Position numbers and translations under genes: made by a program. From Cordylochernes scorpioides (taxonomy: Eukaryota > Arthropoda > Arachnida > Pseudoscorpiones > Chernetidae): a DNA stretch of 64,000 nt. The stretch is taken from the NCBI GenBank assembly GCA_030710605.1, contig CP092870.1:56133532-56197531 (forward strand), read 5' to 3'. Every line of letters starts with the position of its first letter. Within the stretch, counting starts at the first letter, position 1. The notes under the pieces are model-generated. The model had not been told where the DNA came from. It worked only from the letters and a program-made list of their open reading frames with translations, and did not search any database. Positions 24-62,290 of the stretch are shown here, in pieces.

Positions 24-234
24 GAATGAAAAGGCACAATTTGGATTATAGATTATAACCACAAGGTAATAAGACCTAATCCAAATAAATAAATAGTGTG
101 TGACGTTTCAGTAACAGTGTTGTTACCATCTTCTGACAAAAGTACTGAATGTACTTTTGTCTGAAGAGGGTAACAACGCTGTTACTGAAACATCACACAC
201 TATTTATTTAGATTTGGTCTTATTACCTTGTGTT
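24..234. repeat. Inverted pair of hammerhead family-1 elements with 11-bp target duplication
   Basis: Two head-to-head copies of a short element seen more than a dozen times in this window. The outer parts are AT-rich and read toward AATAGTGTGTGACGTTTC; the inner parts hold a GTAACA/TGTTAC hairpin. TATACCAATAT occurs at 13..23 and again at 235..245, which looks like a target-site duplication and would make the inverted pair one insertion. The hammerhead cores of both arms are mutated (CAGAAGA in one, CTGAAGA in the other). Confidence 0.7.
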
Positions 235-288
235 TATACCAATATAAAGAAATTATTAAAGAAGGGACTTCAGGTGATGAGTACTCAC

Positions 289-530
289 TGATGGGGGGGC
301 AGTGTGAGGGCTAGGTAGTGTCCACGAGCCGCCAGCTGACCGAAGCAGACAGGATGCAGAGGCCTCATGAGGCCTAGCTTGCTCTCACACACCAAGTCCA
401 GATCTCTGTCCAGCCCCCAGCTGTGGAGTAGGGATAGGATCAACCGGGCTGTCTCCATGGTCAGACTGGTCTCAACCAGCTGAACTCCCTTCAGTCCTGT
501 GTGGTTGGGAGTGCCTTTGCCTGCTCCTTC
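289..530 (-). CDS. WDR7: WDR7 orthologue, coding exon 16 (last exon in window)
   Basis: This exon encodes about residues 764-843 of the joined protein. It contains LTMETARLILSLLHSWGLD and RGHYLALTLP, which align with the LTMDTAKLFMSCLHAWGLN region of vertebrate WDR7, after the first WD-repeat block. The acceptor is TGCAG before GAAGGA and the donor is CATCA followed by GTGAGT, leaving phase 2. The gene continues off the left edge, so the C-terminal part (later WD repeats and the helical region) is missing here. The first 17 codons, upstream of the conserved block, are less certain because only the acceptor and phase define them. Confidence 0.85.
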
Positions 531-562
531 CTGCACCACACCATCTCTCACCGTTAATTACT

Positions 563-868
563 CAACTCCACCTTTGCCGGTCCCAAGCCTGGATGAAAAA
601 GGAGGAGGGGGAGCAGTAACAAGCTCACTAAAAAATCTGGGCTCAGCTGGCTATGCTGATAGTACCCTGTAAGGGCTCCAGGGATACAGGATGAGCAGTG
701 ATTGTATTCCATGTTAAGAGAAGCTGCACATGGCGTCTGTTCCTCATATCAGAGGTGGCCATTTCTTCTGGAGCTAAGTCAGTGGCCTGCCACTGAGTAC
801 TACTCCCAGTCTTAATGACAAAGGCATTCTACTTCACCCAGTCATGAAGATAAGAAAGAAGAAGATCT
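563..868 (+). mobile_element. SINE-A copy
   Basis: It starts at AACTCCACCTTTGCCGG, the same 5' boundary seen in all other complete copies, and ends in the GATAAGAAAGAAGAAG tail shared with LINE-A. The fixed 5' end argues for a short non-autonomous element rather than random 5' truncation of a LINE. No clear tRNA A/B boxes are visible. Confidence 0.7.
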
Positions 869-1049
869 CTCACAGTACAGTACCTGTCACATGCTGGCTA
901 GCTTCAATTGTTGATTATGGCACCAATTTGGAGATTCTTGATTAAAAAAAAAAAAAAAGGTAAACATATTTAACTCTACCTTAGCCAGTCCATGCCTTGG
1001 TGAATGTGCAATGAGTTAAATGTTACTGTAAATTTAAAATTTTTATTTG

Positions 1050-1335
1050 TGTTTATAAATACAGTAAAACCTACCCTTAAAGGACACCTAATTGCAGAGC
1101 CAAAGTATCTTTTAGGAATTTGGATTCTCGAATAAAAACATAAGGTAAACATATTTAACTGCCTTTGCCAGTCAAAATCCCTGGTGCATATGCAACGGAT
1201 TAAATGTTCATATAAATTAAATTTTTTTTTTGTTTGTGTTCTTAAATATAGTAGAACCTCCCTGTAAAGGACTACACCGAATTGCAGAACCAAAGTATCC
1301 TTTAGAGAGCGATGTCCTCTTACCGTTTATATTCT
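1050..1335 (+). mobile_element. Pogo-like MITE-1, two degraded left ends
   Basis: ACAGTAAAACC at 1063 and ATAGTAGAACCTCCC at 1249 match the inverted terminus ACAGTAGAACCTCC used by this family. Each is followed by its typical AAAGGACAC and AGAGCCAAAGT segments. The right ends are missing. Confidence 0.5.
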
Positions 1336-1384
1336 TATTTTATACTTAATAGCTATTTATCTTCTAATGGGTTAAACCTCAATA

Positions 1385-1745: not shown

Positions 1746-1789
1746 TTCTATTTTACTCAATCATTATGGATGTCAAATCTCTTTTGATG

Positions 1790-2125: not shown

Positions 2126-2203
2126 AAAGTTAATGAGGTTTAGAACTGGCTGTCATTGAAGAAACATCCATTGTGAATGGTTTAACGCTCTAGCAATAAT
2201 GAA

Positions 2204-2350: not shown

Positions 2351-2459
2351 GAGGTGTGCTCCGTCCTGATGTATTAACCCCAAACATCATTGCCATTTCT
2401 ACTACAAATTTATAACCAACTTGTATTAACACCATGTTAGTTTGGTAAGACAGAACACA

Positions 2460-2945: not shown

Positions 2946-2999
2946 TTAAAAAAGAAACACATTTCCAAGTAAATTTATTTCTTACAAATTTTATCCAAC

Positions 3000-3745: not shown

Positions 3746-3748
3746 CAC

Positions 3749-12429: not shown

Positions 12430-12535
12430 ATATTCTCTTTTTCTCATTCGCACTTTTGTCTGAAGATAACCCTGTTACCGAAACATCACACACTATTTAT
12501 TTGGATTTGGACTTATTACCTTGTGTTTATAGTGG
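12430..12535 (+). repeat. Single family-1 hammerhead element half
   Basis: One arm only: ACTTTTGTCTGAAGATAACC, then TGTTACCGAAACATCACACA and the outer TTATTTGGATTTGG block. The left hairpin strand is shortened, so helix II would be poor. Confidence 0.6.
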
Positions 12536-18195: not shown

Positions 18196-18334
18196 TTTTT
18201 GTGGTTTATTTGATGAATAAAGAAAGGGCCAATATTCTGATAGAATTAGTTGGTATTTATTCCAACAGATAGTACAATTCATCAATATAATTTTCAGTTG
18301 AAAGATCAGATTACTTTTCTTCTCAAATGTTAAG

Positions 18335-18560
18335 GCGATATTTGGATTATAGATTATAAACACAAAATAATAAGACCAAATCTAAATAAATAGTCTGTGA
18401 CATTTCGGTAACAGCGTTGTTACCATCATCAGTCAAAAAGTACTGAATTTCGAATTGAATCATTCAGTACTTTTGTCAGAAGATGGTGAACAATGCTGTT
18501 ACTGAAACGTCACACACTATTTTTTTTTTTTTGGATTTGGTCTTATTACCTTGTGTTTTC
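18335..18560. repeat. Inverted pair of family-1 hammerhead elements
   Basis: The left arm on the minus strand has an intact CTGATGA core, the GGTAACA/TGTTACC helix and GAAATGTC. The right arm has CAGAAGA. The arms meet around GAATTTCGAATTGAATC. A second, degraded copy follows at 18665..18815. Confidence 0.7.
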
Positions 18561-19211
18561 TTCTCAAAGTTTGTCAACAATGATTCCCCATGATGGTTCA
18601 AACCTTTAGTTATGCTCAGTTGCAAGATCAGAGAATGCCTTTTATAATCTAAAAGCGAGGAAAACTCAAGGTAATAAGTCCAAATCCAAAAAAAATAAAT
18701 TGTGTGTGCTCTTTCGGTAACAGTCTGGTAGAAATTCTGTTGACTAAACATCAAAACAAAATTTATTTATTTGTTATTTTATATACCTTGTGATTATAAT
18801 CTATAATCCAAATTGTGTCTTATCAATCTAAAAGCATGTTACTACACATATGCAACCTTTACTTGTCAATACACATATATGCAAATTGAACCCAAACAGG
18901 TACAGTTTCATATGGAGAGGCTGCTACTTATCATAAAACAGCTCGAGGAGCATAAACTCATGGAATTTGTGTAATCTTTACACAGTTTCATATCCAAAAT
19001 GACTATTTTTTACTAATTAGCATCTCTATGGTAAGATAACATTTCTCTCTAAAAGGACACTATGGCTCTGTAATCAGGTGCTGTCCTTTACAGAGAAATT
19101 ATGCTGTTTAAAAAACCATAGGCTTGAAAAAATTTTAATTAAATAAAAAAAAAAATAGTTGCAGCATCTTATGCTCTTTTTATAGATGGAAATTTGGCCA
19201 GAGGATATTGA

Positions 19212-19835: not shown

Positions 19836-22800
19836 TTAAAGTAGACAGCATTGTGCTATAGGCATTCTACCTCCTGAACCAATCTGGACTTGTAGACAAC
19901 ATTGTGCTATAGGCATTCTACCTCCTGAACCAATCTGGACTTGTAGACAACATTGTGCTATAGGCATTCTACCTCCTGAACCAATCTGGACTTGTAGACA
20001 ACATTGTGCTATAGGCATTCTACCTCCTGAACCAATCTGGACTTGTAGACAACATTGTGCTATAGGCAATCTACCTCCTGCACCAATCTGGACTTGTAGA
20101 CAACTTTGTGCTATAGGCATTCTACCTCCTGAACCAATCTGGACTTGTAGACAACATTGTGCTATAGGCATTCTATATCTTGTACCAATCTGGACTTGTA
20201 GACATAATTGTGCTATAGGAATTCTACCTCCTGAACCAATCTGGTCTTGTAGACAACATTGTGCTATAGGAATTCTACCTCCTGAACCAATCTGGACTTG
20301 GAGACAACATTGTGCTATAGGCATTCTATATCTTGTACCAATCTGGACTTGTAGACAACATTGTGCTATAGGCATTCTACCTCCTGAACCAATCTGGACT
20401 TGTAGACAACATTGTGCTATAGGAATGCTACCTCCTGAACCAATCTGGACTTGTAGACAACATTGTGCTATAGGATTTCTACCTCCTGAACCAATCTGGA
20501 CTTGTAGACAACATTGTGCTATAGGCATTATACCTCCTGAACCAATCTGGACTTGTAGACAACATTGTGCTATAGGAATTCTACCTCCTGAACCAATCTG
20601 GACTTGTAGACAACATTGTGCTATAGGCATTCTACCTCCTTAACCAATCTGGACTTGTAGACAACATTGTGCTGTAGGAATTCTACCTCCTGAACCAATC
20701 TGGACTTGTAGACAACATTGTGCTATAGGAATTCTACCTCCTGAACCAATCTGGACTTGTAGACAACATTGTGCTATAGGCATTCTACCTCCTGAACCAA
20801 TCTGGACTTGTAGACAACATTGTGCTATAGGAATTCTACCTCCTGAACCAATCTGGACTTGTAGACAACATTGTGCTATAGGCATTCTACCTCCTGAACC
20901 AATCTGGACTTGGAGACAACATTGTGCTATAGGAATTCTACCTACTGAAACAATCTGGACTTGTAGACAACATTGTGCTGTAGGAATTCTATATCTTGTA
21001 CCAATCTGGACTTGTAGACAACATTGTGCTATAGGCATTCTACCTCCTGAAACCAATCTGGACTTGTAGACAACATTGTGCTATAGGAATTCTACCTCCT
21101 GAACCAATCTGGACTTGTAGACAACATTGTGCTATAGGAATTCTACCTCCTGAACCAATCTGGACTTGTAGACAACATTGTGCTATAGGCATTCTACCTC
21201 CTGAACCAATCTGGACTTGTAGACAACATTGTGCTGTAGGAATTCTATATCTTGTACCAATCTGGACTTGTAGACAACATTGTGCTATAGGCATTCTACC
21301 TCCTAAACCAATCTGGACTTGTAGACAACATTGTGCTATAGGCATTCTACCTCCTGAACCAATCTGGACTTGTAGACAACATTGTGCTGTAGGAATTCTA
21401 TATCTTGTACCAATCTGGACTTGTAGACAACATTGTGCTATAGGCATTCTATATCTTGTACCAATCTGGACTTGTAGACAACATTTTGCTATAGGCATTC
21501 TATATTTTGTACCAATCTGGACTTGAAACAACATTGTGCTATAGGCATTCTACCTCCTAAACCAATCTGGACTTGTAGACAACATTGTGCTATAGGAATT
21601 CTACCTCCTGACCCAATCTGGACTTGTAGACAACATTGTGCTATAGGAATTCTACCTCCTGAACCAATCTGGACTTGTAGACAACATTGTGCTATAGGAA
21701 TCCTACCTCCTGAACCAATCTGGACTTGTAGACAACATTGTGCTATAGGCATTCTACCTCCTTAACCAATCTGGACTTGTAGACAACATTGTGCTGTAGG
21801 AATTCTATCTCCTGAACCAATCTGGACTTGTAGACAACATTGTGCTATAGGCATTCTACCTCCTGAACCAATCTGGACTTGTAGACAACATTGTGCTATA
21901 GGCATTCTATATCTTGTACCAATCTGGACTTGTAGACAACATTGTGCTATAGGCATTCTACCTCCTGAACCAATCTGGACTTGTAGACAACATTGTGCTA
22001 TAGGCATTCTACCTCCTGAACCAATCTGGACTTGTAGACAACATTGTGCTATAGGCATTCTACCTCCTGAACCAATCTGGACTTGTAGACAACATTGTGC
22101 TATAGGCATTCTACCTCCTGAACCAATCTGGACTTGTAGACAACATTGTGCTGTAGGAATTCTATATCTTGTACCAATCTGGACTTGTAGACAACATTGT
22201 GCTATAGGCATTCTATATCTTGTACCAATCTGGACTTGTAGACAACATTGTGCTATAGGAATTCTACCTCCTGAACCAATCTGGACTTGTAGACAACATT
22301 GTGCTATAGGCATTCTATATCTTGTACCAATCTGGACTTGTAGACAACATTGTGCTATAGGCATTCTACCTCCTGAACCAATCTGGACTTGTAGACAACA
22401 TTGTGCTATAGGAATTCTACCTCCTGAACCAATCTGGACTTGTAGACAACATTGTGCTATAGGAATTCTACCTCCTGAACCAATCTGGACTTGTAGACAA
22501 CATTGTGCTATAGGCATTCTACCTCCTGAACCAATCTGGACTTGTAGACAACATTGTGCTATAGGCATTCTACCTCCTGAACCAATCTGGACTTGTAGAC
22601 AACATTGTGCTATAGGCATTCTACCTCCTTAACCAATCTGGACTTGTAGACAACATTGTGCTATAGGCATTCTACCTCCTGAACCAATCTGGACTTGTAG
22701 ACAACATTGTGCTATAGGCATTCTACCTCCTGAACCAATCTGGACTTGTAGACAACATTGTGCTGTAGGAATTCTATATCTTGTACCAATCTGGACTTGT

Positions 22801-27600: not shown

Positions 27601-28000
27601 TAATGATAAGGCACAATTTGAATTATAGAATATAAACACAATGTCTTCTTCTTTCTTATCTCCACTCAATCATGACTGGGTGAAGTAGAATGTGTCTGCC
27701 TTTGTCATTAAGACTAGGAGCACTACTCAGTGGCAGGCCAACTTAACTCTAAAAGAAATGGCTGCCTCTGAAATGAGGAACAGATGCCATGTGCAGCCGC
27801 TCCTAACATGTAGTACAAACGCTGCTCATCCTGTATCCCTGGAGCCCTTACAGGGTACTATCAGCATGGCCAGCTGAGCCCAGGTTTTTTTTAGTGAGCT
27901 TGTTACAGCTCCCCCTCCTTTTTCATCCGGGCTTGGGACCGGCAAAGGTGGAGTTATAAACACAAGGTAATAAGACCAAATCCAAATAAAATCTAATGTT
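27601..28000. repeat. Family-1 element split by a reverse SINE-A
   Basis: The family-1 outer part stops at TATAAACACAATG near 27642. SINE-A in reverse occupies 27643..27957, and TATAAACACAAGG resumes the family-1 sequence. The repeated TATAAACACAA is the likely target duplication. Confidence 0.7.
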
Positions 28001-28484
28001 GTGTTTATTTATGAACATAAAAAAATCCCTGTATTCAAAGTCTTCCCACTTTCTGTAGTTCAGGAATTTTCAAGTTTAATTCAGGTTTAAAAAAGCATGT
28101 AAGCTATTTCTGCTTAAGTGAAACCATTCCCTGATAAAAGGAAGAAGCCTCTATCCATATGCTGAAAAAGAAGTGAAGGGAAAATTAGAAAATACAGTTA
28201 AACCTGTCTATATTCCCCCTCTAAATAGCGCCTCCCTCTCTATAGCACTCGATTTTAAATATGTAGTATGATGCTATTCATATTAAATTGGTAGTATGAT
28301 GCTATTCATATTAAATATGTAGTATGATGCTATTCATATTAAATATGTAGTATGATGCTATTCATATTAAATATGTAGTATGATGCTATTCATATTAAAT
28401 AAGTTACCTCGTGAAGATAGAGGCTGCCTGGCCGGCATTCATATTTCTTGAAAAAAGATACTTCGGCCAGTATAAATCTTTTTA

Positions 28485-28530
28485 TTACCTCGACGTTTCG
28501 ACAAAAAGCTTTTGTCCTCATCAGGAGCAA
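28485..28530 (-). ncRNA. Hammerhead-ribozyme-like motif, family 2, minus arm
   Basis: On the minus strand: CTC, CTGATGA (28518..28524), then GGACAAAAGC-TTTTTGTC forming a 7-bp helix II. GAAA, the palindrome ACGT, C, and GAG follow. CTC and GAG pair as a short helix I. All invariant hammerhead core bases are present. The palindromic helix III suggests activity as a dimer. Activity is inference. Confidence 0.65.
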
Positions 28531-28604
28531 ACAAAAATTAAAAAATATAGCAAGGCGTTAAGAATAATTTTTAACGCCTTGCTATATGTTTTAATTTTTG
28601 TTTG

Positions 28605-28643
28605 CTCCTGATGAGGACAAAAGCTTTTTGTCGAAACGTTGAG
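28605..28643 (+). ncRNA. Hammerhead-ribozyme-like motif, family 2, plus arm
   Basis: CTC, then CTGATGA (28608..28614), helix II GACAAAA/TTTTGTC, GAAA (28633..28636), ACGT, T at the cleavage position, GAG. It is the mirror copy of the minus-arm motif, and the two arms form one large hairpin. Confidence 0.65.
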
Positions 28644-28787
28644 AAAATAAAAAGATTTATACTGGCCGAAGTATCTTTTTTCAAGAAATAAAAGTGACCT
28701 GTCTATAGCACCCCCTCTCTATAGCACTCTATTTTGCTGAGTCCCAAGAGGGGGCGCTATAGGCAGGTTTAACTGTAGTATCCTCAC

Positions 28788-41580: not shown

Positions 41581-41638
41581 TTTAAACACAAGGTAATAAG
41601 ACCAAATCCATATTAATAAATAGTGTGTCCACTATATA

Positions 41639-41795
41639 CAGTTAAACCTGTCTATAGCGCATCCTCTTAATAGCGCCTCCCTCTCTATAGTGCCCGATTT
41701 TAAATATGTAGTTCGATTCGATTTACATTAAAAGTGACCTGTCTATAGCACCCTATTTTTGTCCCAAGAGGGGGTGCTATAGACAGGTTTAACTG
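41639..41795. mobile_element. Pogo-like MITE-2, intact, inside a family-1 element
   Basis: A 157-bp element with the same termini and TA flanks as the copy at 40957. Its flanks AATAGTGTGTCCACTA and CACACTATTTATG are family-1 hammerhead-element sequence. Confidence 0.8.
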
Positions 41796-41809
41796 TACAC
41801 ACTATTTAT

Positions 41810-42153
41810 GAAAGAGACCTCCTCCGTACCATCAAAACCCAATGCTTGCAGGAATGGAAATCTAATGCTGCACATGACTGGTACAGAGCAGGAGGGACAA
41901 GCATCGGTTCTGTCCTCCCAAGAGAACAGTCTTTGATTTCCAGACTTAAGTCTGGTCATCTACGGACAATGACTTTCCAGAATGTTTGCAAGGTTTTCTC
42001 ACTATGTGCAATTCTCAACCTGCAACCCCAAAACACATTATTGACTGTATTGACTCTTCCATTGATGAGCTCTACTCATCCCTGACAGACACCATCAACA
42101 AACTTTACAAGCTTGACACCATATTATGATTGAGTGGAGATAAGAAAGAAGAA
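41810..42153 (+). pseudogene. LINE-A RNase H terminal fragment
   Basis: Encodes LQEWKSNAAHDWYRAGGTSI and LISRLKSGHLRTMTFQN, then the LINE-A tail GAGTGGAGATAAGAAAGAAG. It is 5'-truncated. The PLE insertion begins directly after it. Confidence 0.65.
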
Positions 42154-42214
42154 GACACTATTTATTTAAAAAGAGAGATTAAGAGGAACGTGGTAAGTTT
42201 CTTTATTAAGCAGT

Positions 42215-42253
42215 ATACGAGCTTTCGGACGTCAGCCGTCCTTCATCAGGTAT
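42215..42253 (-). ncRNA. PLE hammerhead-ribozyme-like motif, left arm
   Basis: Same motif as at 44831..44869, on the minus strand: ATAC, CTGATGA, GGAC/GTCC helix II, GAAA, palindrome AGCT, C, GTAT. ATAC and GTAT pair as helix I. Confidence 0.75.
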
Positions 42254-42512
42254 TGACATGAATGAGAAGGAGATGCTATATTTATAAGCGACAGTTTAGC
42301 ATAAAAAATATTAAACAAGAAATAAAAGATTAAAAAGATTTGAGATTTGCATGCCAGTAATAAAAATATTTAAAAGTGTACAATATATAGATTTAAGAAA
42401 ATCTGCATACCTAGGATGAAGGGAAAAAGGCGGAAAACTAGAGGCGAAGACAAAAGCAAGAATAAAAATAAAAATAAGAATATAAACGAGAATATAAAAA
42501 TAAAGTTAAAAG

Positions 42513-43050
42513 TTACGAAGGAGGTGTATCTGTTGGTATAGAATAAAAAGCAGAATATTGGGGCGGGAGGTCAATCTTTCTGTTGAGGCTGGGTGTAGTA
42601 TTGGAGACAAGGGCTTCGAGAACTAAGCGTTGGTATTTATTTGCTATATCGCTATAAACGGGGGTTGTATTGTCGAGATTGAAGGAATGTCCGGATTCGG
42701 CGATATGTTGGTATATGAGCGATTTTTTGTCTTTCGAGCGGATGTTGCGGGCGTGTTCACTGGCTCTGATGGCGATTGTTCGGCCTGTTTCTCCAATATA
42801 GCATAAATCGCAATCATTACAAGAAATTTTGTAAATGGCGTTAGAAAGGGATTGGGGGTTACGTTTGGCGGAGCTTTTTGTGATTGGATGTCGTAAGAAG
42901 GTGTAAAGGGAAGGTGTGCACTTGTAAAGAGTGCGAATGCCGAATTTACGTAAAAAGGAACCAATACCGGAATTCGTGGTGGAGTATGGGAGGACGCAGG
43001 TGCTTTTAAATAAAGGAGGTGTGGTTCTTTTTTGATTGGGTGTGAAAAAA
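42513..43050 (-). pseudogene. PLE GIY-YIG endonuclease region, truncated inverted copy
   Basis: Open from about the inversion junction through NAIYKISCNDCDLCYIGETG (the GIY-YIG-like nuclease core) and RASEHARNIRSKDKKSLIYQ to a stop at 42513. The reading frame through the nuclease is intact in this arm, unlike in the plus arm. It has no reverse transcriptase and no start of its own. Confidence 0.8.
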
Positions 43051-44432
43051 TTTCCGATGGCTTTAAGTTTGCACTCAGGACGCTCAAGAGGAATGGAAGC
43101 ATCACCCCCGAGCAATTCCAGCGATTCACCTCCAACCTTACCGGCGTCTCTTACATATACGGCCTCCCTAAGACCCATAAGCCCCACATTCCCCTTAGGC
43201 CCATTGTAGCCTACCACCTCTCCCCTGCACTACACTTAGCTAAATATCTCACTAACCTCCTTAAACCTCTCGTTAAAACACACAACCTCTTTTCAGTTCA
43301 AGATCCTACCGAATTTCTAACCAAATTAAAGAGTATTCCCCAGCCTGATAAACTTATCATGTCCACCTTCGACGTAACATCCCTTTTCCTATGCCTTCCG
43401 CACTCTTTGATTACAGACGGTCTTAGTTCACTCCTTGCCTTCTCTACATTCTCTAGCAAAGACCAAAAATCGATAATAGATCTGTTTACTATCTGTCTTG
43501 GCATGAATACCCTCGAATTCAACAGCCGTTCCTTTCTACAGATACGAGGCTCCCCTATGGGCAGTCCTCTCTCCACAATCGCAGCGGAAATTGTCATGCT
43601 AGGGCTGGACCAATGGCTGGTGTCCAAAGATCATTTGGGGGTCGTTACTTGGTTACGTTACGTAGACGACATCTTCTGCCTACACCGAGATACCGATCAT
43701 TTACCCATTCTCACCGCTTTAAACTCTTACCATCCGGATCTACTTTTTACACACAACCCGTCCCGCTCTAACTGTATTCCATTTTTAGACATTTTAATTA
43801 TTAACACCGACGATAAATTCCACACAACGGTCTTTCACAAACCCGGCTTTACCCCCTCGTACCTACATTTTTCATCCCACGCCCCCGTCTCCCATAAGAT
43901 CACCACCGTCCGAACTCTTTCCAAACGTATCTACACCCACTGTTCCCTCCCTTTCTTTAAAAATATCGAGAGGCGCACGGTCTACTCGCATCTCTTGTCC
44001 GCGGGCTATCCACGCAGTTTTATCGACCGACATTTTTTCACACCCAATCAAAAAAGAACCACACCTCCTTTATTTAAAAGCACCTGCGTCCTCCCATACT
44101 CCACCACGAATTCCGGTATTGGTTCCTTTTTACGTAAATTTGGCATTCGCACTCTTTACAAGTGCACACCTTCCCTTTACACCTTCTTACGACATCCAAT
44201 CACAAAAAGCTCCGCCAAACGTAACCCCCAATCCCTTTCTAACGCCATTTACAAAATTCCTTGTAATGATTGCGATTTATGCTATATTGGAGAAACAGGC
44301 CGAACAATCGCCATCAGAGCCAGTGAACACGCCCGCAACATCCGCTCGAAAGACAAAAAAATCGCTCATATACCAACATATCGCCGAATCCGGACATTCC
44401 TTCAATCTCGACAATACAACCCCCGTTTATAG
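43051..44432 (+). pseudogene. PLE reverse transcriptase-endonuclease, 5'-truncated and frameshifted
   Basis: The reverse transcriptase begins near VSYIYGLPKTHKPHIPLRPI and includes the QIRGSPMGSPLS motif and the catalytic RYVDDIF motif. It is followed by FLDILIINTDDKFHTTVFHK and the GIY-YIG-like AIYKIPCNDCDLCYIGETGR. The N-terminal part upstream of the RT core is missing at the inversion junction. A run of seven A near 44352..44360 (six in the left arm) shifts the frame after RSKDKK, so the end of the nuclease is misread. The correct frame continues to 44571. This copy is unlikely to be autonomous. Confidence 0.88.
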
Positions 44433-44830
44433 CGATATAGCAAATAAATACCAACGCTTAGTTCTCGAAGCCCTTGTCTCCAATACTACACCCAGCCTCA
44501 ACAGAAAGATTGACCTCCCGCCCCAATATTCTGCTTTTTATTCTATACCAACAGATACACCTCCTTCGTAACTTTTAACTTTATTTTTATATTCTCGTTT
44601 ATATTCTTATTTTTATTTTTATTCTTGCTTTTGTCTTCGCCTCTAGTTTTCCGCCTTTTTCCCTTCATCCTAGGTATGCAGATTTTCTTAAATCTATATA
44701 TTGTACACTTTTAAATATTTTTATTACTGGCATGCAAATCTCAAATCTTTTTAATCTTTTATTTCTTGTTTAATATTTTTTATGCTAAACTGTCGCTTAT
44801 AAATATAGCATCTCCTTCTCATTCATGTCA

Positions 44831-44869
44831 ATACCTGATGAAGGACGGCTGACGTCCGAAAGCTCGTAT
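44831..44869 (+). ncRNA. PLE hammerhead-ribozyme-like motif, right arm
   Basis: Helix I ATAC (44831..44834) / GTAT (44866..44869); core CTGATGA (44835..44841); helix II GGAC/GTCC; GAAA (44858..44861). AGCT then serves as a self-complementary helix III, followed by C as the cleavage-site base. All invariant core bases are present. Hammerheads are known from PLE terminal repeats. Activity here is inferred, most likely as a dimer. Confidence 0.75.
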
Positions 44870-45044
44870 ACTGCTTAATAAAGAAACTTACCACGTTCCT
44901 CTTAATCTCTCTTTTTATATTCCAAACGTGGCTTATCATGTCTGACACTATTTATTTATTTGGCTTTGGTCTTTTTACCTTGTGTTTATAATTTATAATC
45001 CAAATTGTACCTTATAATCCAATGATTTATTTAACTCCCAATGA

Positions 45045-45710: not shown

Positions 45711-45755
45711 CAACAACTCCCAATGTTTCAGTGACCTGCTGTCCCTCTCCTCATC

Positions 45756-45800
45756 ACTCCACTGAAGAGAATGACATCAAGTCACTGAAACATCAGGAGT
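45756..45800 (+). ncRNA. Hammerhead-like motif, family 3
   Basis: Helix I ACTCC (45756..45760) / GGAGT (45796..45800) with one A-A mismatch at the core. Core CTGAAGA (U7 replaced by A), helix II TGAC/GTCA, GAAA (45787..45790), ACAT, C. A partial inverse arm (GTTTCAGTGACC) lies at 45724. Confidence 0.55.
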
Positions 45801-45944
45801 TAAAATAAACCATTAGTTGATATGGCTGTGTTTATCTCTGAATACACTTCCAACCAACAAATGAATTTCAGATTTACAAGGATGAAAGGAATAGCTGGGA
45901 AATTCACAAGAAAGCATTTAGTTCTTCCAATGATAAATCACAAT

Positions 45945-46065
45945 TACGATTATAGATTATAATACAATAAAATAAGACCTAATCCAAATAATTTATTAGT
46001 GTGTGACAATGCTGTTGCTGAAACGTCACACACTAATAAATTATTTGGATTAGGTCTTTTTTTCA
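45945..46065. repeat. Shortened inverted family-1 element
   Basis: AATCCAAATAATTTATTAGT and ACTAATAAATTATTTGGATT flank a reduced centre. One arm's GAAACGTCACACAC remains, but the CTGATGA core is lost. Confidence 0.65.
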
Positions 46066-46216
46066 TGTAGTTCTTACAATATTTCAAGAGAGTTTTTCAA
46101 GTTGCAAAGGTGAGGGAAGAGGACAGCAATAAAACTGGAGGGTTGTTTGGTGATCTGAATTCTCAGTTCCAGCAAAGCAGTAGTCAGGGTGGTTCCAAAA
46201 CCTGCAGTGTTTTAAG

Positions 46217-46533: not shown

Positions 46534-46659
46534 TAAGCATAATAAACCATTTGAATAGCTCTTTATTTCATTGGGGATTGGTCAAATTCAAACTGAACAC
46601 CTTTAAGTTCAATAAAATCTACTTCTATAGTGTGCACAGTACTAAATCCTTTATCAACA

Positions 46660-46835
46660 CAAGGCAATAAGACCAAATCCAAATAGATAAATAGTATGTA
46701 ACATTTCGGTAACATTGTTGTTACCGTTGGAAGATTGTAACAACGTTGTTACTGAAACATCACACACTATTTATTTATTTGGTCTTATTACTTGTGTTTA
46801 TAATCTATAATCCAAATTATGCTTTATCCTTAAAT
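46660..46835. repeat. Inverted pair of family-1 elements, about 110 bp from exon 1
   Basis: The arms AATAAGACCAAATCCAAATA and TATTTATTTGGTCTTATTAC enclose two GTAACA/TGTTAC hairpins meeting at CGTTGGAAGATTG. The cores are degraded. Confidence 0.7.
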
Positions 46836-50095: not shown

Positions 50096-51015
50096 TTGAA
50101 TCTCCATCAGAGGACGCTAGAAGTTATCTCTCTACAAAGGACAGTTTTCATCACCAAAATGTCCATTTTTATCAATTAACTGCTCTCCTGTAAGAGGACA
50201 CCTCTCCTTAAAGAAAACTTTGGCTCTGTAACTAGGTGTTGTCCTTTACAGAAAGGTAGTTCTACTGTAGCTGCTCTCCCTAAAGGACACTTTGGCTCTG
50301 TAACTAGGTGTTGTCCTTTACAGAGAGGTAGTTCTACTGTAGCTGCTCTCCCTAAAGGACACTTTGGCTCTGTAACTAGGGTGTTGTCCTTTACAGAAAG
50401 GTAGTTCTACTGTAGCTGCTCTCCCTAAAGGACACTTTGGCTCTGTAAAAGGTGTTGTCCTTCAGAGAGGTAGTTCTACTGTAGCTGCTCTCCCTAAAGG
50501 ACACTTTGGCTCTGTAACTAGGTGTTGTCTTTACAGAGAGTTAGATCTACTGTAGCTGTTCTCCCTAAAGGAAACTTTGGCTCTGTAATTAGGTGTTGTC
50601 CTTTACAGAGAGGTAGTTCTACTGTAGCTGCTCTCCTAAAGGACACTTTGGCTCTGTAACCAGGTGTTGTCCTTTACAGAGAGGTAGTTCTACTGTAGCA
50701 ACTCTCCCTAAAGGACACTTTGGCTCTGTAACTAGGTGTTGTCCTTTACAGAGAGGTAGTTCTACCGTAGCAACTCTCCCTGAAGGACACTTTGGCTCTG
50801 TAACCAGGTGTTGTCCTTTACAGAGAGGTAGTTCTACTGTAGCAACTCTCCCTAAAGGACACTTTGGCTCTGTAACTAGGTGTTGTCCTTTACAGAGAGG
50901 TAGTTCTACTGTAGCGGCTCTCCCTAAAGGAAACTTTGGCTCTGTAACTATGTGTTGTCCTTTACAGGGAGGTAGTTCTACTGTAGCTGCTCTCCCTAAA
51001 GGACACTTTGGCTCT
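50096..51015 (-). repeat. 72-bp tandem array from MITE-1 left ends
   Basis: From about 50270, ten units of 72 bp run CTGCTCTCCCTAAAGGACAC, TTTGGCTCTGTAACTAGG, TGTTGTCCTTTACAGAGAGG, TAGTTCTACTGTAG. Read on the minus strand each begins with the MITE-1 terminus CTACAGTAGAACTACC. Three units in the opposite direction lie at 56808..57010. Confidence 0.9.
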
Positions 51016-51690
51016 ACGTTTCGACAAAAATCTTTTGTCATCGTCAGGAGTGAACAAAAATTAAAACATTTTGCAAAGCGCTAAAAAATTATTATAAGGC
51101 TGCAAGAGCGTTCTCATTGTGATATTTAAACTTTTGTGATTAATTACAAAAAAAAATACAAATTTTGAAATATTGAGTGAGACGCCCTTGCAGCCTTAGA
51201 ATAATTTTTAACACTTTGTCAAATGGTTTAATTTTTGTTCGCTCCTGATGAGGACAAAAGATTTTTTTTTAACTCCGCCCTTGCCGGTCCCAAGCCCAGA
51301 TGAAAAAGAAAGAGGGGGAGCAGGAACAAGCTCGCTAAAAAACCTGGGCTCAGCTGGCCCAGCTGATAGTACCCTGTAAGGGCTCCTAATCCAGGGATAC
51401 AGGATGAGCAGCGTTTGTACTACATGTTAGGAGCAGCTGCACATGGCATCTGTTCCTTAAGTCAGAGGTGGCCATTTATTTTGGAGTTAAGTCGGCCTGC
51501 CATTGAGTAGTGCTCCCAGTCTTAATGACAAAGGCAGACGCATTCTACTTCACCCAGTGTGGAGATAAGAAAGAAGAAGAAGACAAAAGATTTTTGTTGA
51601 AACATCAAGACAATAAAAAGATTTACTGGCTGAAGTATCATCAATTTGAAGAACTATGAATCCCGGCCAAGCAGCCTCTATCTTTACAAT
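51012..51690. repeat. Inverted family-2 hammerhead pair interrupted by SINE-A
   Basis: The left arm starts TACGTTTCGACAAAAATC. The right arm has GCTCCTGATGAGGACAAAAG (intact CTGATGA) and then SINE-A. Its GAAAC part (TTGTTGAAACATCAAG) lies beyond the SINE, so this hammerhead is split. Confidence 0.7.
51271..51581 (+). mobile_element. SINE-A copy with 14-bp target duplication
   Basis: AACTCCGCCCTTGCCGG to AAGAAAGAAGAAGAA. GACAAAAGATTTTT is present at 51253..51266 and 51582..51595, a clear target-site duplication. This supports mobilisation of SINE-A as a unit with a fixed 5' end. Confidence 0.82.
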
Positions 51691-51929
51691 GGTAAATATG
51701 TAGATATGTAGTACACTTGCAGTAAGAACAGTCGCTAACTACCACCCACCTTGACTAGCATGGTCCGTACGACATGTACTTGGGATTAAAAGTGTTCTTT
51801 AGAGAAGGTTGTCCACTTACTGGAGAGAAAGTAAGTCGTAAAAAAAGAGTAATTTAGACGTAGAAAATTGCCTCTAAAAATAGGTGTCCACTTATGATAA
51901 TTCTACTTAATTTTTCTAAAAAAAAAAAA

Positions 51930-52670
51930 ACAAGGTAATAAGGCCAAATCCAAATAAAAAAAGAGTGTGTGACGTTTCTGTAACAGTGTTGTTACCATCT
52001 TCAGACAAAAGTACTAAATGAGAAAATATACCACAGCATGTTTTAAATTAGTTACTGATAAAGCACAATTTGGATCATAGATTATAGATACAAGGTAATA
52101 AGACCTTATCCATATAATTTAATAGTGTATGACATTAAGGTAACAGCATTTTTACCATCATCAGACAAAAGGAATACTGCTGGAATCTGTCCCACGACCT
52201 GCCGGAATACACTTAAAAGAGAAAATCAAAAAGGTTGAAATTCATGAAGGATTGACTGTAGCATTTTACATTTTTTTTGTATAGATTCGGTTTTCTTATA
52301 ATAGAGTAAATAAAGTACCTTTTGGTATGACGTTCTCAGTTTTTATTTGCGTTCAATGTGTTTTTCGTACCGCTTATATGGACTGATGTACCACATTGTG
52401 GCCTAAATATGTATATGTTATATTTCTAAATATTGATGAGATACATAAAACCTAACATTATATTCGTGATCAGAACCTCAAATTAAGTCAGAAACTGATG
52501 CATTATCAAAAACATCTATTTCAGTGTAGACCAGTGTAATTTAATAGTGTGTGCCGTTTCGGTAACAGCATTGTTACCATTATCAGTTCATTTATTCTTT
52601 TGTCTGATGATAGTAACAACGCTGTTACCGAAACATCACACACTATTAATTTATTTGGATTTGGTCTTAT
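51930..52670. repeat. Three family-1 hammerhead elements or parts
   Basis: Copies are at 51930..52030, 52065..52175 (minus-strand CTGATGA core intact but GAAA lost) and the inverted pair 52535..52670. In that pair the plus arm has CTGATGA at 52599..52605, GTAACA/TGTTAC and GAAACATC. Confidence 0.65.
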
Positions 52671-52679
52671 GGGGGGGAG

Positions 52680-54265: not shown

Positions 54266-54509
54266 CACAATAAGGAGATGCCTTTTTTTCTTAATTTTTA
54301 CAACTTATCCTAGTACAATTTCACTTTTTTTTTTTTCACAAATAATTTAATGGCAAGATAAGTAGAAAGAGAAAAGGTAGAGGAGACTGCATCCAAAGAT
54401 ATGGAAGGAACAATTGCCAGCTTATGTAATGAAAGTATTTAATCTTATCAAAAGGTTTTTTCCCAAGGTAACAAGACCAAATCCCCCAATAAGTAAATAT
54501 AACACATAG

Positions 54510-54885
54510 ACGATAAAGCACAATTTGGATTATATATTATAGATATAAGAAAATAAGATCTAATCCAAATAAATTAATGGTGACAATGATGGCAACCATG
54601 CTGTTACCGAAATGTCACACTCTTTTAAATTATTTGGATTAGGTCTTATTTTTTTTGTATCGTAACTCCTAGACAAAACTTAAAAAGTGGAAAAACTTGA
54701 TTTCGCCAGTTATCAATTTTTTTTAAAAAGGAGATAAGGCAATTTTATTCACACTTATTTATCTTGTGTGTCTTCAATAAAGGTCAATGTAATATCTTTC
54801 ATGCTAAAAGGTACAACTTCCTTTAGTTTTGCCCATGAGTGTATCTTTCAGAGTTATTGTTCAAATTCCAATATACATGCATATC
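54510..54885. repeat. Reduced family-1 pair, then a 123-bp-family element
   Basis: 54510..54650 holds facing AATCCAAATAAATTAATGG and AAATTATTTGGATTAGG arms with a short GAAATGTCACAC centre. 54660..54885 has GACAAAACTTAAAAAGTGG, GGCAATTTTATTCACAC and one incomplete 123-bp-type unit. Confidence 0.6.
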
Positions 54886-57145: not shown

Positions 57146-57344
57146 TGTATATTTCCAAGTTCCCATAACACTCTCTTATTCAGACACTTGTGGCAAATAT
57201 ATCCTGAAATCAACATTTGTTCAGGATATCAAGCATTCAACATGTAATCTCTTATTTTTCTTTCACACTAGCAGAGACACTACATGAAAAGAGGCCAACA
57301 CATGTTGTTTTTCTTAACTGGATATATATATATAAATTAAGATG

Positions 57345-57675
57345 TGATAAGGCACAATTTGAATTATAGATTATAAACAAAAGGTAATAAGACCAAATCC
57401 AAATAAATAAATAGTGTGTGACATTTCGGTAACAGTGTTGTTACCATCTTCAGACAAAAGTACTGAATGAGAAATTTTACCACAGCATGTTTTAAATAGT
57501 TACTTTTATCAAGTGTGTAAACAAGATAGCAGATAAGAAGAAGATAGAACAGTAACTATTTAAAACATGCTGTGATATTTTTTCTCATTCAGCACTTTTG
57601 TCTGAAGATGGTAACAATGCTGTTACCGAAACGTCGCACACTATTTATTTATTTGAATTTGGTCTTATTACTTTG
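57345..57675. repeat. Inverted family-1 pair with long inner arms
   Basis: The arms include AAATAAATAGTGTGTGACAT / GCACACTATTTATTTATTTG and further matching inner parts up to CACAGCATGTTTTAAATAGT / AACTATTTAAAACATGCTGT. The right arm has CTGAAGA, GGTAACA/TGTTACC, GAAACGTC. Confidence 0.75.
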
Positions 57676-57952
57676 GGTATAAATTAAGATAAAACTGAAG
57701 ATTTTCTATTTATAACAAATGAAGACATTATGACACGAATGTTTCCCTTCACAAATAAATCAAATTTCTACTGTCCTTACTGCGATATTGGGAGGGCTTG
57801 GCTCATCAGTGGTGAACCCTCCCAGCTGTTTTGCCATTTTATCTACCAGACCACTTCTTAGAACTCTAATACTGTATTGGATCATTCTGCTTATATATGC
57901 TACACTGAAGGGTGGAATCTTAGAAATGGTCCATTGGGACATTGTATAGGAT

Positions 57953-58555: not shown

Positions 58556-58735
58556 GTAGAACTACCTCCCTGTAAAGGACAACACCTAGTTACAGAACCA
58601 AAGTTCCCTTGAGAGAGAGGTGTCCTCTTACTGGAGAGTTGATAATTAGCAAAAATGGAAATTTTGATGAAGAAAACTGCCCTTTATAGAGAGAGGTGTC
58701 CTCTAAGTAAGTGTGTTCTCTCATGAAGATTCTGT
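58556..58735 (+). mobile_element. Pogo-like MITE-1 with the array joined to its right end
   Basis: ACAGTAGAACTACCTCCCTG to TGTTCTCTCATGAAGATTCT. Its right terminus runs straight into the first 123-bp unit. Confidence 0.6.
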
Positions 58736-61290
58736 TGTACCTTTCAGCATGTATATCGGGATTAAGACAATAACTCTGAAAGATATTACAGTGACCTTTA
58801 TTGAAGACACACGAGATAACCAAGTGTGTATACACTCATGGACAAAACTTAAGGAAGTTGTACCTTTTAGCATGTATATCGGGATTGAGACAATAACACC
58901 GAAAGATATTACAGTGACCTTTATTGAAAACACACGAGATAACCAAGTGTGTATACACTCATGAACAATACTTAAGGAAGTTGTACCTTTTAGCATGTAT
59001 ATCGGGATTAAGACAATAACTCTGAAAGTTATTACAGTGGCCTTTATTGAAGACACACGAGATAACCAAGTGTGTATACACTCATGGACAAAACTTAAGG
59101 AAGTTGTACCTTTCAGCATGTATATCGGGATTAAGACAATAACTCTGAAAGATATTACAGTGACCTTTATTGAAGACACACGAGATAACCAAGTGTATAT
59201 ACACTCATGGACAAAACTTAAGGAAGTTGTACCTTTTAGCATGTATATCGGGATTAAGACAATAACTCTGAAAGATATTACAGTGACCTTTATTGAAGAC
59301 ACACGAGATAACCAAGTGTATATACACTCATGGACAAAACTTAAGGAAGTTGTACCTTTTAGCATGTATATCGGGATTAAGACAATAACTCTGAAAGATA
59401 TTACAGTGACCTTTATTGAAGACACACGAGATAACCAAGTGTATATACACTCATGGACAAAACTTAAGAAAGTTGTACCTTTTAGCATGTATATCGGGAT
59501 TCAGACAATAACTCTGAAAGATATTACAGTGACCTTTATTGAAGACACACGAGATAACCAAGTGTATATACACTCATGGACAAAACTTAAGGAAGTTGTA
59601 CCTTTTAGCATGTATATCGGGATTAAGACAATAACTCTGAAAGATATTACAGTGACCTTTATTGAAGACACACGAGATAACCAAGTGTATATACACTCAT
59701 GGACAAAACTTAAGAAAGTTGTACCTTTCAGCATGTATATCGGGATTAAGACAATAACTCTGAAAGATATTACAGTGACCTTTATTGAAGACACACGAGA
59801 TAACCAAGTGTATATACACTCATGGACAAAACTTAAGGAAGTTGTACCTTTCAGCATGTATATCGGGATTAAGACAATAACTCTGAAAGATATTACAGTG
59901 ACCTTTATTGAAGACACACGAGATAACCAAGTGTATATACACTCATGGACAAAACTTAAGGAAGTTGTACCTTTCAGCATGTATATCGGGATTAAGACAA
60001 TAACTCTGAAAGATATTACAGTGACCTTTATTGAAGACACACGAGATAACCAAGTGTATATACACTCATGGACAAAACTTAAGGAAGTTGTACCTTTCAG
60101 CATGTATATCGGGATTAAGACAATAACTCTGAAAGATATTACAGTGACCTTTATTGAAGACACACGAGATAACCAAGTGTATATACACTCATGGACAAAA
60201 CTTAAGAAAGTTGTACCTTTCAGCATGTATATCGGGATTAAGACAATAACTCTGAAAGATATTACAGTGACCTTTATTGAAGACACACGAGATAACCAAG
60301 TGTATATACACTCATGGACAAAACTTAAGGAAGTTGTACCTTTCAGCATGTATATCGGGATTAAGACAATAACTCTGAAAGATATTACAGTGACCTTTAT
60401 TGAAGACACACGAGATAACCAAGTGTATATACACTCATGGACAAAACTTAAGAAAGTTGTACCTTTTAGCATGTATATCGGGATTAAGACAATAACTCTG
60501 AAAGATATTACAGTGACCTTTATTGAAGACACACGAGATAACCAAGTGTATATACACTCATGGACAAAACTTAAGAAAGTTGTACCTTTTAGCATGTATA
60601 TCGGGATTAAGACAATAACTCTGAAAGATATTACAGTGACCTTTATTGAAGACACACGAGATAACCAAGTGTATATACACTCATGGACAAAACTTAAGAA
60701 AGTTGTACCTTTTAGCATGTATATCGGGATTCAGACAATAACTCTGAAAGATATTACAGTGACCTTTATTGAAGACACACGAGATAACTAAGTGTATATA
60801 CACTCATGGACAAAACTTAAGGAAGTTGTACCTTTTAGCATGTATTTCGGGATTCAGACAATAACTCTGAAAGATATTACAGTGACCTTTATTGAAGACA
60901 CACGAGATAACCAAGTGTATATACACTCATGGACAAAACTTAAGGAAGTTGTACCTTTTAGCATGTATATCGGGATTAAGACAATAACTCTGAAAGATAT
61001 TACAGTGACCTTTATTGAAGACACACGAGATAACCAAGTGTGTATACACTCATGGACAAAACTTAAGGAAGTTGTACCTTTCAGCATGTATATCGGGATT
61101 CAGACAATAACTCTGAAAGATATTACAGTGACCTTTATTGAAGACACACGAGATAACCAAGTGTATATACACTCATGGACAAAACTTAAGGAAGTTGTAC
61201 CTTTTAACATGTATATCGGGATTAAGACAATAACTCTGAAAGATATTACAGTGACCTTTATTGAAGACACACGAGATAACCAGTGAAATA
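58735..61290. repeat. 123-bp tandem array with long open frames
   Basis: About 21 units of 123 bp containing ACTCATGGACAAAACTTAAG, GAAGTTGTACCTTTTAGCAT, GTATATCGGGATTAAGACAA and GATATTACAGTGACCTTTAT. Copies are nearly identical; recurrent variants are GGAAG/GAAAG, TTTAGC/TTCAGC, ATTAAG/ATTCAG and TATATA/TGTATA. The plus strand is open for 598 codons at 58995..60791 as 41-residue repeats, and the minus strand is also open for several hundred codons. Dispersed single copies elsewhere are broken, so I do not call it a gene. Confidence 0.93.
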
Positions 61291-61555
61291 AATTGTCTCT
61301 GTATCCTTAAAAGAAATAAGATGAACGGCGTCATAAAAAACTTTCCAATCCCTTAAGGCCATGACTATAGTTGTTATAATTACTTATATTCTCTCAAAAA
61401 AATAAACAAATATATTTTTTTATGGATTTTAGAAAAAGAATTTGATTTGTGACAATAATTTTTTGGCAATGTGTTTCTTTTCATATATATAATCAAATCA
61501 TATGTCCATGGGTTCCCTAAACACCACCAAGCTGTCTTCCATAGTAAATACAGGG
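61291..61555. other. AT-rich intergenic sequence
   Basis: Nothing recognised. Confidence 0.45.
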
Positions 61556-62040
61556 TATATAATAATCCAATACAATAGTAGAGCGGTCTGGAGATTGATT
61601 TGGTGAAACCGCTGAGAGGGTTCACTACTGATGAGCAAAAGCCCTCTCATTCAATGTTCATCATTGTAGTAAAGTCTATAGAGATGATGATATATATATA
61701 TGACATGTCAGAAAATTATTGTTAGAAATTATCGATAGATAGCAATTAAATTTATAAAATAACTCCGTCTTCGCCGGTCCCAAGCCCGGATGAAAAAGGA
61801 GGAGGGGGAGCAGTAACAAACTCACTAAAAAACCTGGGCTCAGCTGGCCATGCTGATAGTACCCTGTCCAGGGATACAGAATGAGCAGTGTTTGTATTCC
61901 ATGTTATGAGCGGCTGCACATGGCGTCTGTTCCTTGGCCATTTCATATTGGAGCTAAGTCAGCCTGCTACTGAGTAGAGCTCCCAGTCTTAATGACAAAG
62001 GCAAACACGTTCTACTTCACCCAGTCATGATGGTTGTCAT
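61556..62040 (+). mobile_element. AGATGGC-type MITE part, then SINE-A without tail
   Basis: 61560..61690 has GAGAGGGTTCACTACTGATG and AGCCCTCTCATTCAATG. SINE-A at 61761..62040 starts AACTCCGTCTTCGCCGG and stops at GATGGTTGTCATAATC, lacking the GAA-type tail. Confidence 0.6.
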
Positions 62041-62064
62041 AATCAAATTTCTAAAATAATTATA

Positions 62065-62290
62065 ATGATAAGGCACAATTTGGATTATAGATTATAAACA
62101 CAAGGTAATAAGACCAAATCCAAATAAATTAATAGTGTATGACGTTTCAGTAACAAAGCTGTTACTGAAACATCACACACTATTTATTTATTTGGATTTG
62201 GTCTTCATTCAGTACTTTTGTCTGAAGATGGTAACAACACTGTTACCGAAACGTCATACACTATTTGGATTTGGTCTTATTACCTTGAGT
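62065..62290. repeat. Family-1 triple: inverted pair plus a direct copy
   Basis: A short inverted pair joined at AGTAACAAAGCTGTTACTG is followed by a second plus-strand arm with CTGAAGA, GGTAACA/TGTTACC and GAAACGTC at about 62220..62255. Confidence 0.7.

What the first reader, a model, noticed from the sequence alone, without database searches (positions are those of the whole stretch)
24..62290. Abundant family-1 elements are non-autonomous hammerhead carriers, mostly as head-to-head pairs
At least 14 copies share a core of CTGA(A/T)GA, a GGTAACA/TGTTACC helix II, GAAACGTC, and TGT/ACA as helix I. Position 7 of the core, the variable one, is the base that differs. Most copies are inverted pairs, one with an 11-bp duplication at 13..23 and 235..245. 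They resemble animal retrozymes or solo PLE termini but are not tandem. They may be mobilised by PLE proteins, and the inverted layout may reflect the priming mechanism.
Basis: partly seen in the sequence, partly recalled or inferred. Interest (0 to 1): 0.75.

Follow-up and report, generated by a model that had tools for sequence, protein, structure and literature searches.

The report
Penelope retrotransposon ends inserted as mirrors
The short mirror-image repeats in this animal-like DNA are most likely broken end pieces of Penelope-like jumping genes that carry a minimal hammerhead ribozyme; the elements are of a known kind, but their lopsided pairs hint at how such elements start copying themselves at both edges of a break.

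Summary
The repeats are real. I find 31 family-1 arms; 13 keep both core halves ungapped and 6 of those 13 keep CTGANGA plus GAAAC. Hammerhead-like sites exceed chance: 11 found, 0.017 expected.

Family 1 has the anatomy of Penelope-like element (PLE) ends: fixed 3' ends, variable 5' truncation, head-to-head pairs, and 9-13 bp target duplications in 8 of 9 complete pairs. In 9 of 9, one arm stops at a short end and the other carries a ~30-bp extension. This matches the published PLE "tail", which lies between two reverse-transcription start sites (PMC3846280, PMC11167929).

A PLE (RT plus weak GIY-YIG match) at 42169-44943 and family B at 28.4 kb share this layout but not the sequence. In all three a 7-9 bp stem spans the tail, its 5' strand ending 20-21 nt before the short end (Fisher p 0.0008).

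No retrozyme label is needed, and two places contain direct tandems. All 11 hammerhead-like sites have one extra base before helix II.

New member of a known kind. One tail per pair (11 of 11) suggests coordinated priming on both strands. Species unknown; no full-length family-1 PLE found.

The parts
24..234 (.). Family-1 head-to-head pair; left arm with tail, right arm short; TSD TATACCAATAT 13-23 / 235-245
   Evidence: score 12; 0 of 110 mispaired flanks as good
12440..12531 (+). Unpaired family-1 arm, short 3' end, 5' strand of helix II deleted
18328..18555 (.). Family-1 head-to-head pair; left tail, right short; TSD TTTTCTTCTCAAA
   Evidence: score 13; 0 of 110
18657..18824 (.). Family-1 head-to-head pair; left short, right tail; TSD AATCTAAAAGC
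   Evidence: score 11; 0 of 110
41585..45020 (.). Family-1 head-to-head pair (left short, right tail; TSD AATGATTTA) split by three nested insertions: a palindromic MITE, a non-LTR 3' end, and PLE C. Both family-1 arms begin exactly at the predicted hammerhead cut GTC|ACACAC
   Evidence: score 9; 3 of 110 as good; hinge and nesting read by eye
45932..46067 (.). Family-1 (subfamily b) head-to-head pair; left tail, right short; TSD TAGTTCTT(C/A)CAAT
   Evidence: score 10; 1 of 110
46655..46830 (.). Family-1 head-to-head pair; left short, right tail; TSD TAAATCCT(T/C)TAT
   Evidence: score 9; 3 of 110
51928..52201 (-). Two family-1 arms in direct order (subfamily b with tail, then subfamily a)
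52537..52671 (.). Family-1 head-to-head pair, both outer ends cut back; left out of the tail count
54508..54650 (.). Family-1 (b) head-to-head pair; left tail, right short (model end 144, then a T run); no TSD found
   Evidence: score 4; 108 of 110 as good
57344..57677 (.). Longest family-1 head-to-head pair; left tail, right short; TSD TATAAATTAAGAT; intact core at 57602-57635
   Evidence: score 13; 0 of 110
62065..62293 (.). Family-1 inverted arm with tail plus two direct arms, the last ending short; TSD TAAAA(T/G)AATTATA; intact core at 62222-62255
   Evidence: score 10; 1 of 110
42169..44943 (.). PLE C: head-to-head pair of 5'-truncated PLE copies (arms 42164-43054 and 44029-44920, 99-100% complementary); right arm has a ~26-nt tail; TSD GACACTATTTATTTA (15 bp as scored)
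   Evidence: score 15; 0 of 110
43014..44432 (+). PLE C frame with reverse transcriptase (RVT_1, E 2.1e-7, above cutoff) and part of GIY-YIG (E 0.007, below cutoff)
42513..43229 (-). PLE C other arm: GIY-YIG frame (E 0.0018, 19 bits, below the 22.6-bit cutoff)
44835..44865 (+). Hammerhead-like motif of PLE C, CTGATGA-A-GGACG..CGTCC-GAAAGCTC, helix I ATAC/GTAT; mirror copy at 42219-42249 (-)
28403..28685 (.). Family B head-to-head pair; hammerhead-like motifs at 28492-28524 (-) and 28608-28640 (+); left arm with tail, right arm short; TSD not significant
   Evidence: (score 6; 34 of 110)

Best explanation
Family-1 copies are 5'-truncated 3' ends (pseudo-LTR plus tail) of a Penelope-like retrotransposon, mostly inserted as head-to-head pairs. 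Inferred mechanism: a PLE protein with RT and GIY-YIG domains cuts both strands of an AT-rich target about 9-15 bp apart. Each 3'-OH primes reverse transcription inside the element RNA, one end in the loop of a hairpin (short end) and the other just 3' of that hairpin (long end, with tail). Each cDNA stops at a variable 5' point, the two cDNA heads join, and fill-in gives the duplication. Shown here: the layout, the ends, the duplications, a stem across the tail, and a PLE in the window with the same layout. Known from an in vitro anole PLE: both strands cut and extended, two RT start sites, tail between them. Inferred: these steps in this species, the identity of the founder, and coordinated use of one start site per strand. 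The minimal hammerhead is part of this end. It is probably a dimer-type ribozyme (self-complementary ACGU or AGCU as helix III), and it need not be copied for an insertion to form, since one pair lacks it. I hold the identification at about 0.9 and the two-start, two-strand mechanism at about 0.6; the stated confidence is for identification with the broad mechanism.
For: (a) 9 of 9 complete family-1 pairs have exactly one tail arm (model end 183-186) and one short arm (144-163). PLE C and family B do the same: 11 of 11. (b) TSDs: 8 of 9 family-1 pairs score 9-13 and PLE C 15, against a null mean of 5.2, 95th percentile 7 and maximum 10 over 110 mispaired flank comparisons. Four of the eight and PLE C beat every null value; the other four (9, 9, 10, 10) are matched by 1-3 of 110. 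The 9 TSDs are 83% AT; the window is 60% AT. (c) 3' ends are fixed and 5' ends vary across arms. (d) Stems across the tail: family 1, 9 bp (p 0.012); B, 7 bp (p 0.042); C, 7 bp (p 0.020); Fisher 7.7e-4. From the end of the stem's 5' strand to the short end is 20, 21 and 20 nt. (e) RT match above cutoff and GIY-YIG matches below it in PLE C. (f) Three families with unrelated sequence keep the hammerhead helices through different bases, read by eye: helix I TGT/ACA, CTC/GAG, ATAC/GTAT; helix II GGTAACA, GACAAAA, GGACG; helix III ACGU, ACGU, AGCU. (g) Published PLE features match: inverted pLTRs, a 31-bp tail on one of them and 8-10 bp TSDs (PMC3846280, passages); two RT start sites, both strands extended, tail between them (PMC11167929, parts 1-2 of 4).
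Against: No full-length family-1 PLE was seen. Scans of viral contigs and genome contigs gave no relative, but those are not eukaryote collections and no genome is held. One complete pair has no TSD and family B's is not significant; both still count in the 11. The GIY-YIG matches are below Pfam's cutoff. Fold energies of whole end regions are mostly not lower than shuffles (z from -3.6 to +0.2, 1 of 7 segments beyond -2). Segment borders for the stem test were chosen by me. Arms within a pair are only a little closer to each other than to other arms (15.1% vs 17.9% on re-pairing 9 pairs, 1.1% of 5000 permutations as low), so the pairs are old and same-event origin rests on the TSDs. [quoted passage not shown]
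Confidence: 0.83

Rival explanations
1. Head-to-head pairs arise from one cDNA or antisense RNA that folds back and primes itself, as proposed for rotifer Penelope elements; the tail differs only because one end was trimmed.
For: PMC3846280 interprets hinge palindromes as self-priming on an antisense template (passage). Family B's pair at 28.4 kb has a long near-perfect palindromic hinge.
Against: The arms of several family-1 pairs stop at different 5' points and some have filler at the hinge. Exactly one tail of near-constant length in each pair is not expected from random trimming.
Confidence: 0.2
2. Family 1 is a non-autonomous hammerhead retrozyme-like element spreading through small circular RNAs and borrowing PLE protein.
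For: The hammerhead is present; retrozymes and PLEs co-occur in animals and PLEs are proposed as helpers (PMC7229834, passages). Two places have direct tandem arms. One copy (41585-45020) has both arms starting exactly at the predicted cut site.
Against: Minimal hammerhead with helix III reduced to ACGU; no regular tandem array of family 1 (one search lists none with its core); arm 5' ends mostly scattered; the 62205/62206 tandem joint is not at the cut site.
Confidence: 0.08
3. Family 1 is a foldback or inverted-repeat DNA transposon (MITE) and the hammerhead is incidental.
For: Inverted arms with short TSDs; another palindromic MITE-like repeat lies nearby (41637-41797).
Against: Ends are not symmetrical (one ~30-bp tail in 9 of 9), TSD length varies 9-13, 5' points vary, direct arms exist, and the same design is shared with an RT-bearing element.
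Confidence: 0.03

Closest known systems
Penelope/Poseidon-type Penelope-like elements (Adineta vaga Pen families, PMC3846280; anole Poseidon PAc, PMC11167929)
   Same: Inverted pLTR next to a direct pLTR, ~30-40 bp tail on one of them, short TSDs, AT-rich targets and a hammerhead (anole PLE), frequent 5' truncation and partial tandems.
   Different: No ORF is attached to family-1 ends here; the copies seen are only end pieces; the three families here share the layout but not recognisable sequence.
Minimal dimer-type PLE hammerheads (Cervera and De la Pena 2014; Lunse et al. 2017)
   Same: Helix III reduced to a self-complementary ACGU/AGCU, short helix I, linked to PLE ends.
   Different: All 11 scanned sites here carry one extra base between A9 and helix II. 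Whether the published set has it was not checked: neither paper is held; they were seen only as citations and descriptions in reviews.
Metazoan non-LTR retrozymes (PMC7229834)
   Same: Small, type I hammerhead, no ORF, TSDs longer than 4 bp.
   Different: Retrozymes are tandem, with canonical hammerheads and circular RNAs; family 1 is mostly inverted, with a minimal hammerhead and PLE-type tails.

Membership tests
Penelope-like element (as a truncated member) | Telomerase-like RT with GIY-YIG endonuclease in an element of this design | tested here: inconclusive
   PLE C has RVT_1 at E 2.1e-7 (above cutoff) and GIY-YIG at E 0.0018-0.007 (below cutoff). No ORF is attached to family-1 ends; tblastn of the PLE C protein found nothing else in the window at E<1.
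Penelope-like element (as a truncated member) | 30-40 bp tail on one of two inverted pLTRs | tested here: met
   9 of 9 complete family-1 pairs, plus B and C
Penelope-like element (as a truncated member) | Short TSDs at AT-rich targets | tested here: met
   8 of 9 family-1 pairs, 9-13 bp, plus PLE C; 83% AT
Penelope-like element (as a truncated member) | Hammerhead in the pLTR upstream of the RT start region | tested here: met
   Core ends about 50 nt before the short end in family 1; hammerhead activity itself not tested
Penelope-like element (as a truncated member) | Full-length autonomous copy with the same ends | not testable with these tools
   No whole genome held
Hammerhead ribozyme | CUGANGA, helix II, GAAA core with three helices | tested here: inconclusive
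   Core and different-base pairing across three families, but one extra base before helix II in 11 of 11 and no Rfam hammerhead hit at E<=10. In the viroid CChMVd an extra A there moderately lowers the rate, U raises it, and C or G are strongly detrimental (PMC3705267, passage). Family 1 has T in 15 of 16 readable arms, C has A, and family B's 28.4-kb pair has G.
Hammerhead ribozyme | Self-cleavage | not testable with these tools
   Needs an in vitro assay, as a dimer and with PLE protein
Metazoan retrozyme | Canonical type I hammerhead with stable helix III or loop contacts | tested here: not met
   Helix III is only ACGU; loop contacts not examined
Metazoan retrozyme | Tandem repeats and circular RNA | tested here: not met
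   Mostly inverted; two direct cases. Circular RNA not tested.

The most novel reading that the evidence does not exclude
PLE insertion uses its two reverse-transcription start sites as an obligate pair: one break end primes in the loop of a conserved hairpin about 20 nt past its stem, the other just after the hairpin. Every completed double-ended insertion would then have exactly one tail, and a shared RNA geometry, not sequence, would define the PLE 3' end.
Probability: 0.35. Interest if true: 0.62.

Novelty: new member of a known kind. Interest (0 to 1): 0.42.

Why it matters
How Penelope-like elements make head-to-head insertions, and why only some ends have a tail, is only partly explained in the papers I could read. 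Family-1 pairs are many, short and mostly flanked by readable target duplications, so each one records where both strands were primed. The one-tail pattern and the shared hairpin spacing in three families turn this into a prediction that can be tested in any PLE-rich genome or in the existing in vitro system.

Tried and rejected
Whole-genome search: no genome is held. DNA patterns of the family-1 end in viral contigs and of its core in genome contigs gave 0 hits. The PLE C protein against the same two collections gave 5 and 39 pattern matches but no relative by tblastn, and against PDB sequences none. Rfam at gathering threshold: none; at E<=10: no hammerhead. Arm divergence did not separate one-template from two-template origin. 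Whole-segment fold energies, against mononucleotide shuffles, were uninformative, so I tested the single stem across the tail instead; its segment borders were chosen by me and the 20-nt spacing was noticed afterwards. A coding start at the hammerhead ATG, as in the anole PLE, is open past the short end in family B but stops in the family-1 tail. 45762 (a possible fourth family) was left aside: helix I does not pair and its stem is imperfect. Arm 5' ends at the hammerhead cut are clear in one insertion only, too few to claim. In one search the second nhmmer pass used the same profile as the first, so the profile was not in fact refined. The species was not identified.
Full report
What is there. 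The window is animal-like DNA (a WD40-repeat exon at 8631-9173 matches Pfam WD40 models; I read it as WDR7-like from memory) crowded with satellites and mobile elements. The species was not identified. A profile built from 14 hand-picked arms finds 31 arms at E<=0.01, covering 2596 bp. Read in hammerhead sense, the consensus runs: upstream region, CATTCAGTACTTTTGT, CTGAAGA-T-GGTAACA-NNNN-TGTTACC-GAAACGTC, ACACACTATTTATTTATTTGGATTTGGTCTTATTACCTTGTGTT (short end), then TATAATCTATAATCCAAATTGTGCCTTATC (tail).

Chance. A scan for CTGANGA, 0 or 1 extra base, a helix with at least 5 Watson-Crick pairs, and GAAA gives 11 hits; 60 first-order Markov resamplings give a mean of 0.017 and a maximum of 1. 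The 11 hits belong to three families: family 1 (6), family B (3) and PLE C (2). All 11 have the one extra base before helix II. A viroid hammerhead with an extra A there is known: it cleaves somewhat more slowly, U there is faster, C or G much worse (PMC3705267, passage). Family 1 has T in 15 of 16 readable arms, PLE C has A, but family B's 28.4-kb pair has G, which speaks against strong activity of that pair if the viroid result carries over. The two papers that define PLE hammerheads are not held, so I cannot say whether this base is typical of them.

Decay. Of 31 arms, 13 have both core halves ungapped: 10 of 13 keep CTGANGA, 9 of 13 keep GAAAC, 6 of 13 keep both. The CpG of GAAACGTC reads CG in 8, TG in 7, CA in 6 and other in 1 of the 22 arms that cover it, the pattern of CpG deamination in dead copies of a founder with the consensus core. 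Position 7 is A in 10 and T in 6 of 16 readable arms, and 5 of the 6 T arms carry subfamily-b sequence.

Pairs and tails. Twenty-one of 31 arms lie in 10 inverted pairs, one of them with an additional direct arm; 10 arms are unpaired or fragments. One pair (52537-52671) has both outer ends cut back and was dropped. In the other 9, exactly one arm reaches model position 183-186 and the other stops at 144-163; the 144 is the pair at 54508-54650, whose short arm runs into a T run. Family B at 28.4 kb and PLE C also have one tail arm and one short arm. If each arm chose its end independently with equal odds, 11 of 11 would have probability 0.5^11, about 0.0005; this assumes independent insertions and is not corrected for my choice of statistic.

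Target duplications. Comparing 30-base flank segments (score = length minus 3 per mismatch, at most one mismatch), 8 of 9 family-1 pairs score 9-13 and PLE C scores 15; 110 mispaired flank comparisons have mean 5.2, 95th percentile 7 and maximum 10. Four family-1 pairs and PLE C exceed every mispaired value; four family-1 pairs (9, 9, 10, 10) are equalled by 1-3 of 110. Three of the eight have one mismatch. The pair at 54508-54650 (score 4) and family B (score 6) show none. The nine duplications are 83% A+T.

PLE C. At 42169-44943 lie two 5'-truncated copies, head to head, with arms 99-100% complementary. The frame 43014-44432 matches RVT_1 (E 2.1e-7, above Pfam's cutoff) and GIY-YIG weakly (E 0.007; E 0.0018 in the other arm; both below cutoff). 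It contains YIYGLPKTHKP, which I recognise from memory as PLE-like. It sits inside a family-1 copy, with a 15-bp duplication made largely of family-1 sequence. Its hammerhead-like motif lies downstream of the ORF.

Hairpin. Between the hammerhead-to-short-end segment and the tail, the longest perfect stem is 9 bp in family 1 (p 0.012), 7 bp in B (p 0.042) and 7 bp in C (p 0.020), each against 5000 dinucleotide shuffles; Fisher p is 7.7e-4. In all three the short end lies in the loop, 20, 21 and 20 nt after the end of the stem's 5' strand, and the tail contains the 3' strand. The spacing was noticed after the test and is not itself tested; the segment borders were mine. Whole-segment folding did not stand out: 1 of 7 segments beyond z -2.

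Fit with the literature. In Adineta vaga, Penelope elements have inverted pLTRs, a 31-bp 'tail' optionally on one of the inverted pLTRs, 8-10 bp duplications where present, and mostly head-to-head palindromes, interpreted there as self-priming (PMC3846280, passages). For the anole PLE, purified protein cuts and extends both strands, RT starts at two adjacent internal sites, most often in a stem loop, and the tail is the stretch between the sites; hammerhead mutants do not affect insertion in vitro, and the hammerhead cleaves only when protein is added (PMC11167929, parts 1 and 2 of 4). Family 1 agrees with the structural points. It adds that, within single insertions, the two start sites appear to be used one each.

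Hammerhead role. The three families keep helix I, II and III pairing through different bases (by eye), which supports a real hammerhead fold. ACGU or AGCU as helix III suggests dimer action; a review states that PLE hammerheads may self-cleave as dimers (PMC7761336, passage). One insertion (41585-45020) has both arms starting exactly at GTC|ACACAC, as if the RNA had been cut; a single case.

What remains open. There is no full-length family-1 PLE, no species, no RNA data. The paper searches made covered open PubMed Central texts only; I make no claim that the one-tail pattern is unpublished.

Noticed in passing
559, 8428, 26936, 27960(-), 29736, 40658(-), 45336, 51266, 55752, 61756, 62488: Eleven twister-P1 ribozyme matches below Rfam's gathering score (E 1.6e-7 to 0.05; my note says 12, which is a miscount). 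The one aligned lacks an internal hairpin of the model. 5 of 11 have GATAAGAAAGAAGAAG downstream within the 340 nt looked at, 4 at 290-321 nt and 1 at 165 nt, so they may be 5' ends of short RTE-like non-LTR copies. Truncated twisters at RTE 5' ends are mentioned in PMC7761336 (passage).
   Followed up: partly
27604-27991: A family-1 arm is split by a twister-headed non-LTR copy (about 27642-27960, minus), with family-1 sequence repeated on both sides like a ~13-bp target duplication (read by eye).
   Followed up: partly
50990-51695: A second family B head-to-head pair: its right arm is split by a twister-headed element with a GACAAAAGATTTTT duplication, and its left arm runs straight into a 72-bp satellite (50202-51015) (read by eye).
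   Followed up: partly
45715-45801: A 39-nt imperfect inverted repeat with CTGAAGA...GAAACATC, perhaps a decayed PLE end of a fourth family.
   Followed up: no
19841-25493 and 30083-38571: Large satellites: 51-bp units (about 111 copies) and 76-bp units (about 8.5 kb); arrays with 72-76 bp periods also lie elsewhere in the window.
   Followed up: no
28611-28690 and 28381-28521(-): Family B has an open frame from the hammerhead ATG past the short end (MRTKAFCRNVEVIKRFILAEVSFFKK...), recalling the anole PLE, whose ORF starts at hammerhead stem II.
   Followed up: partly
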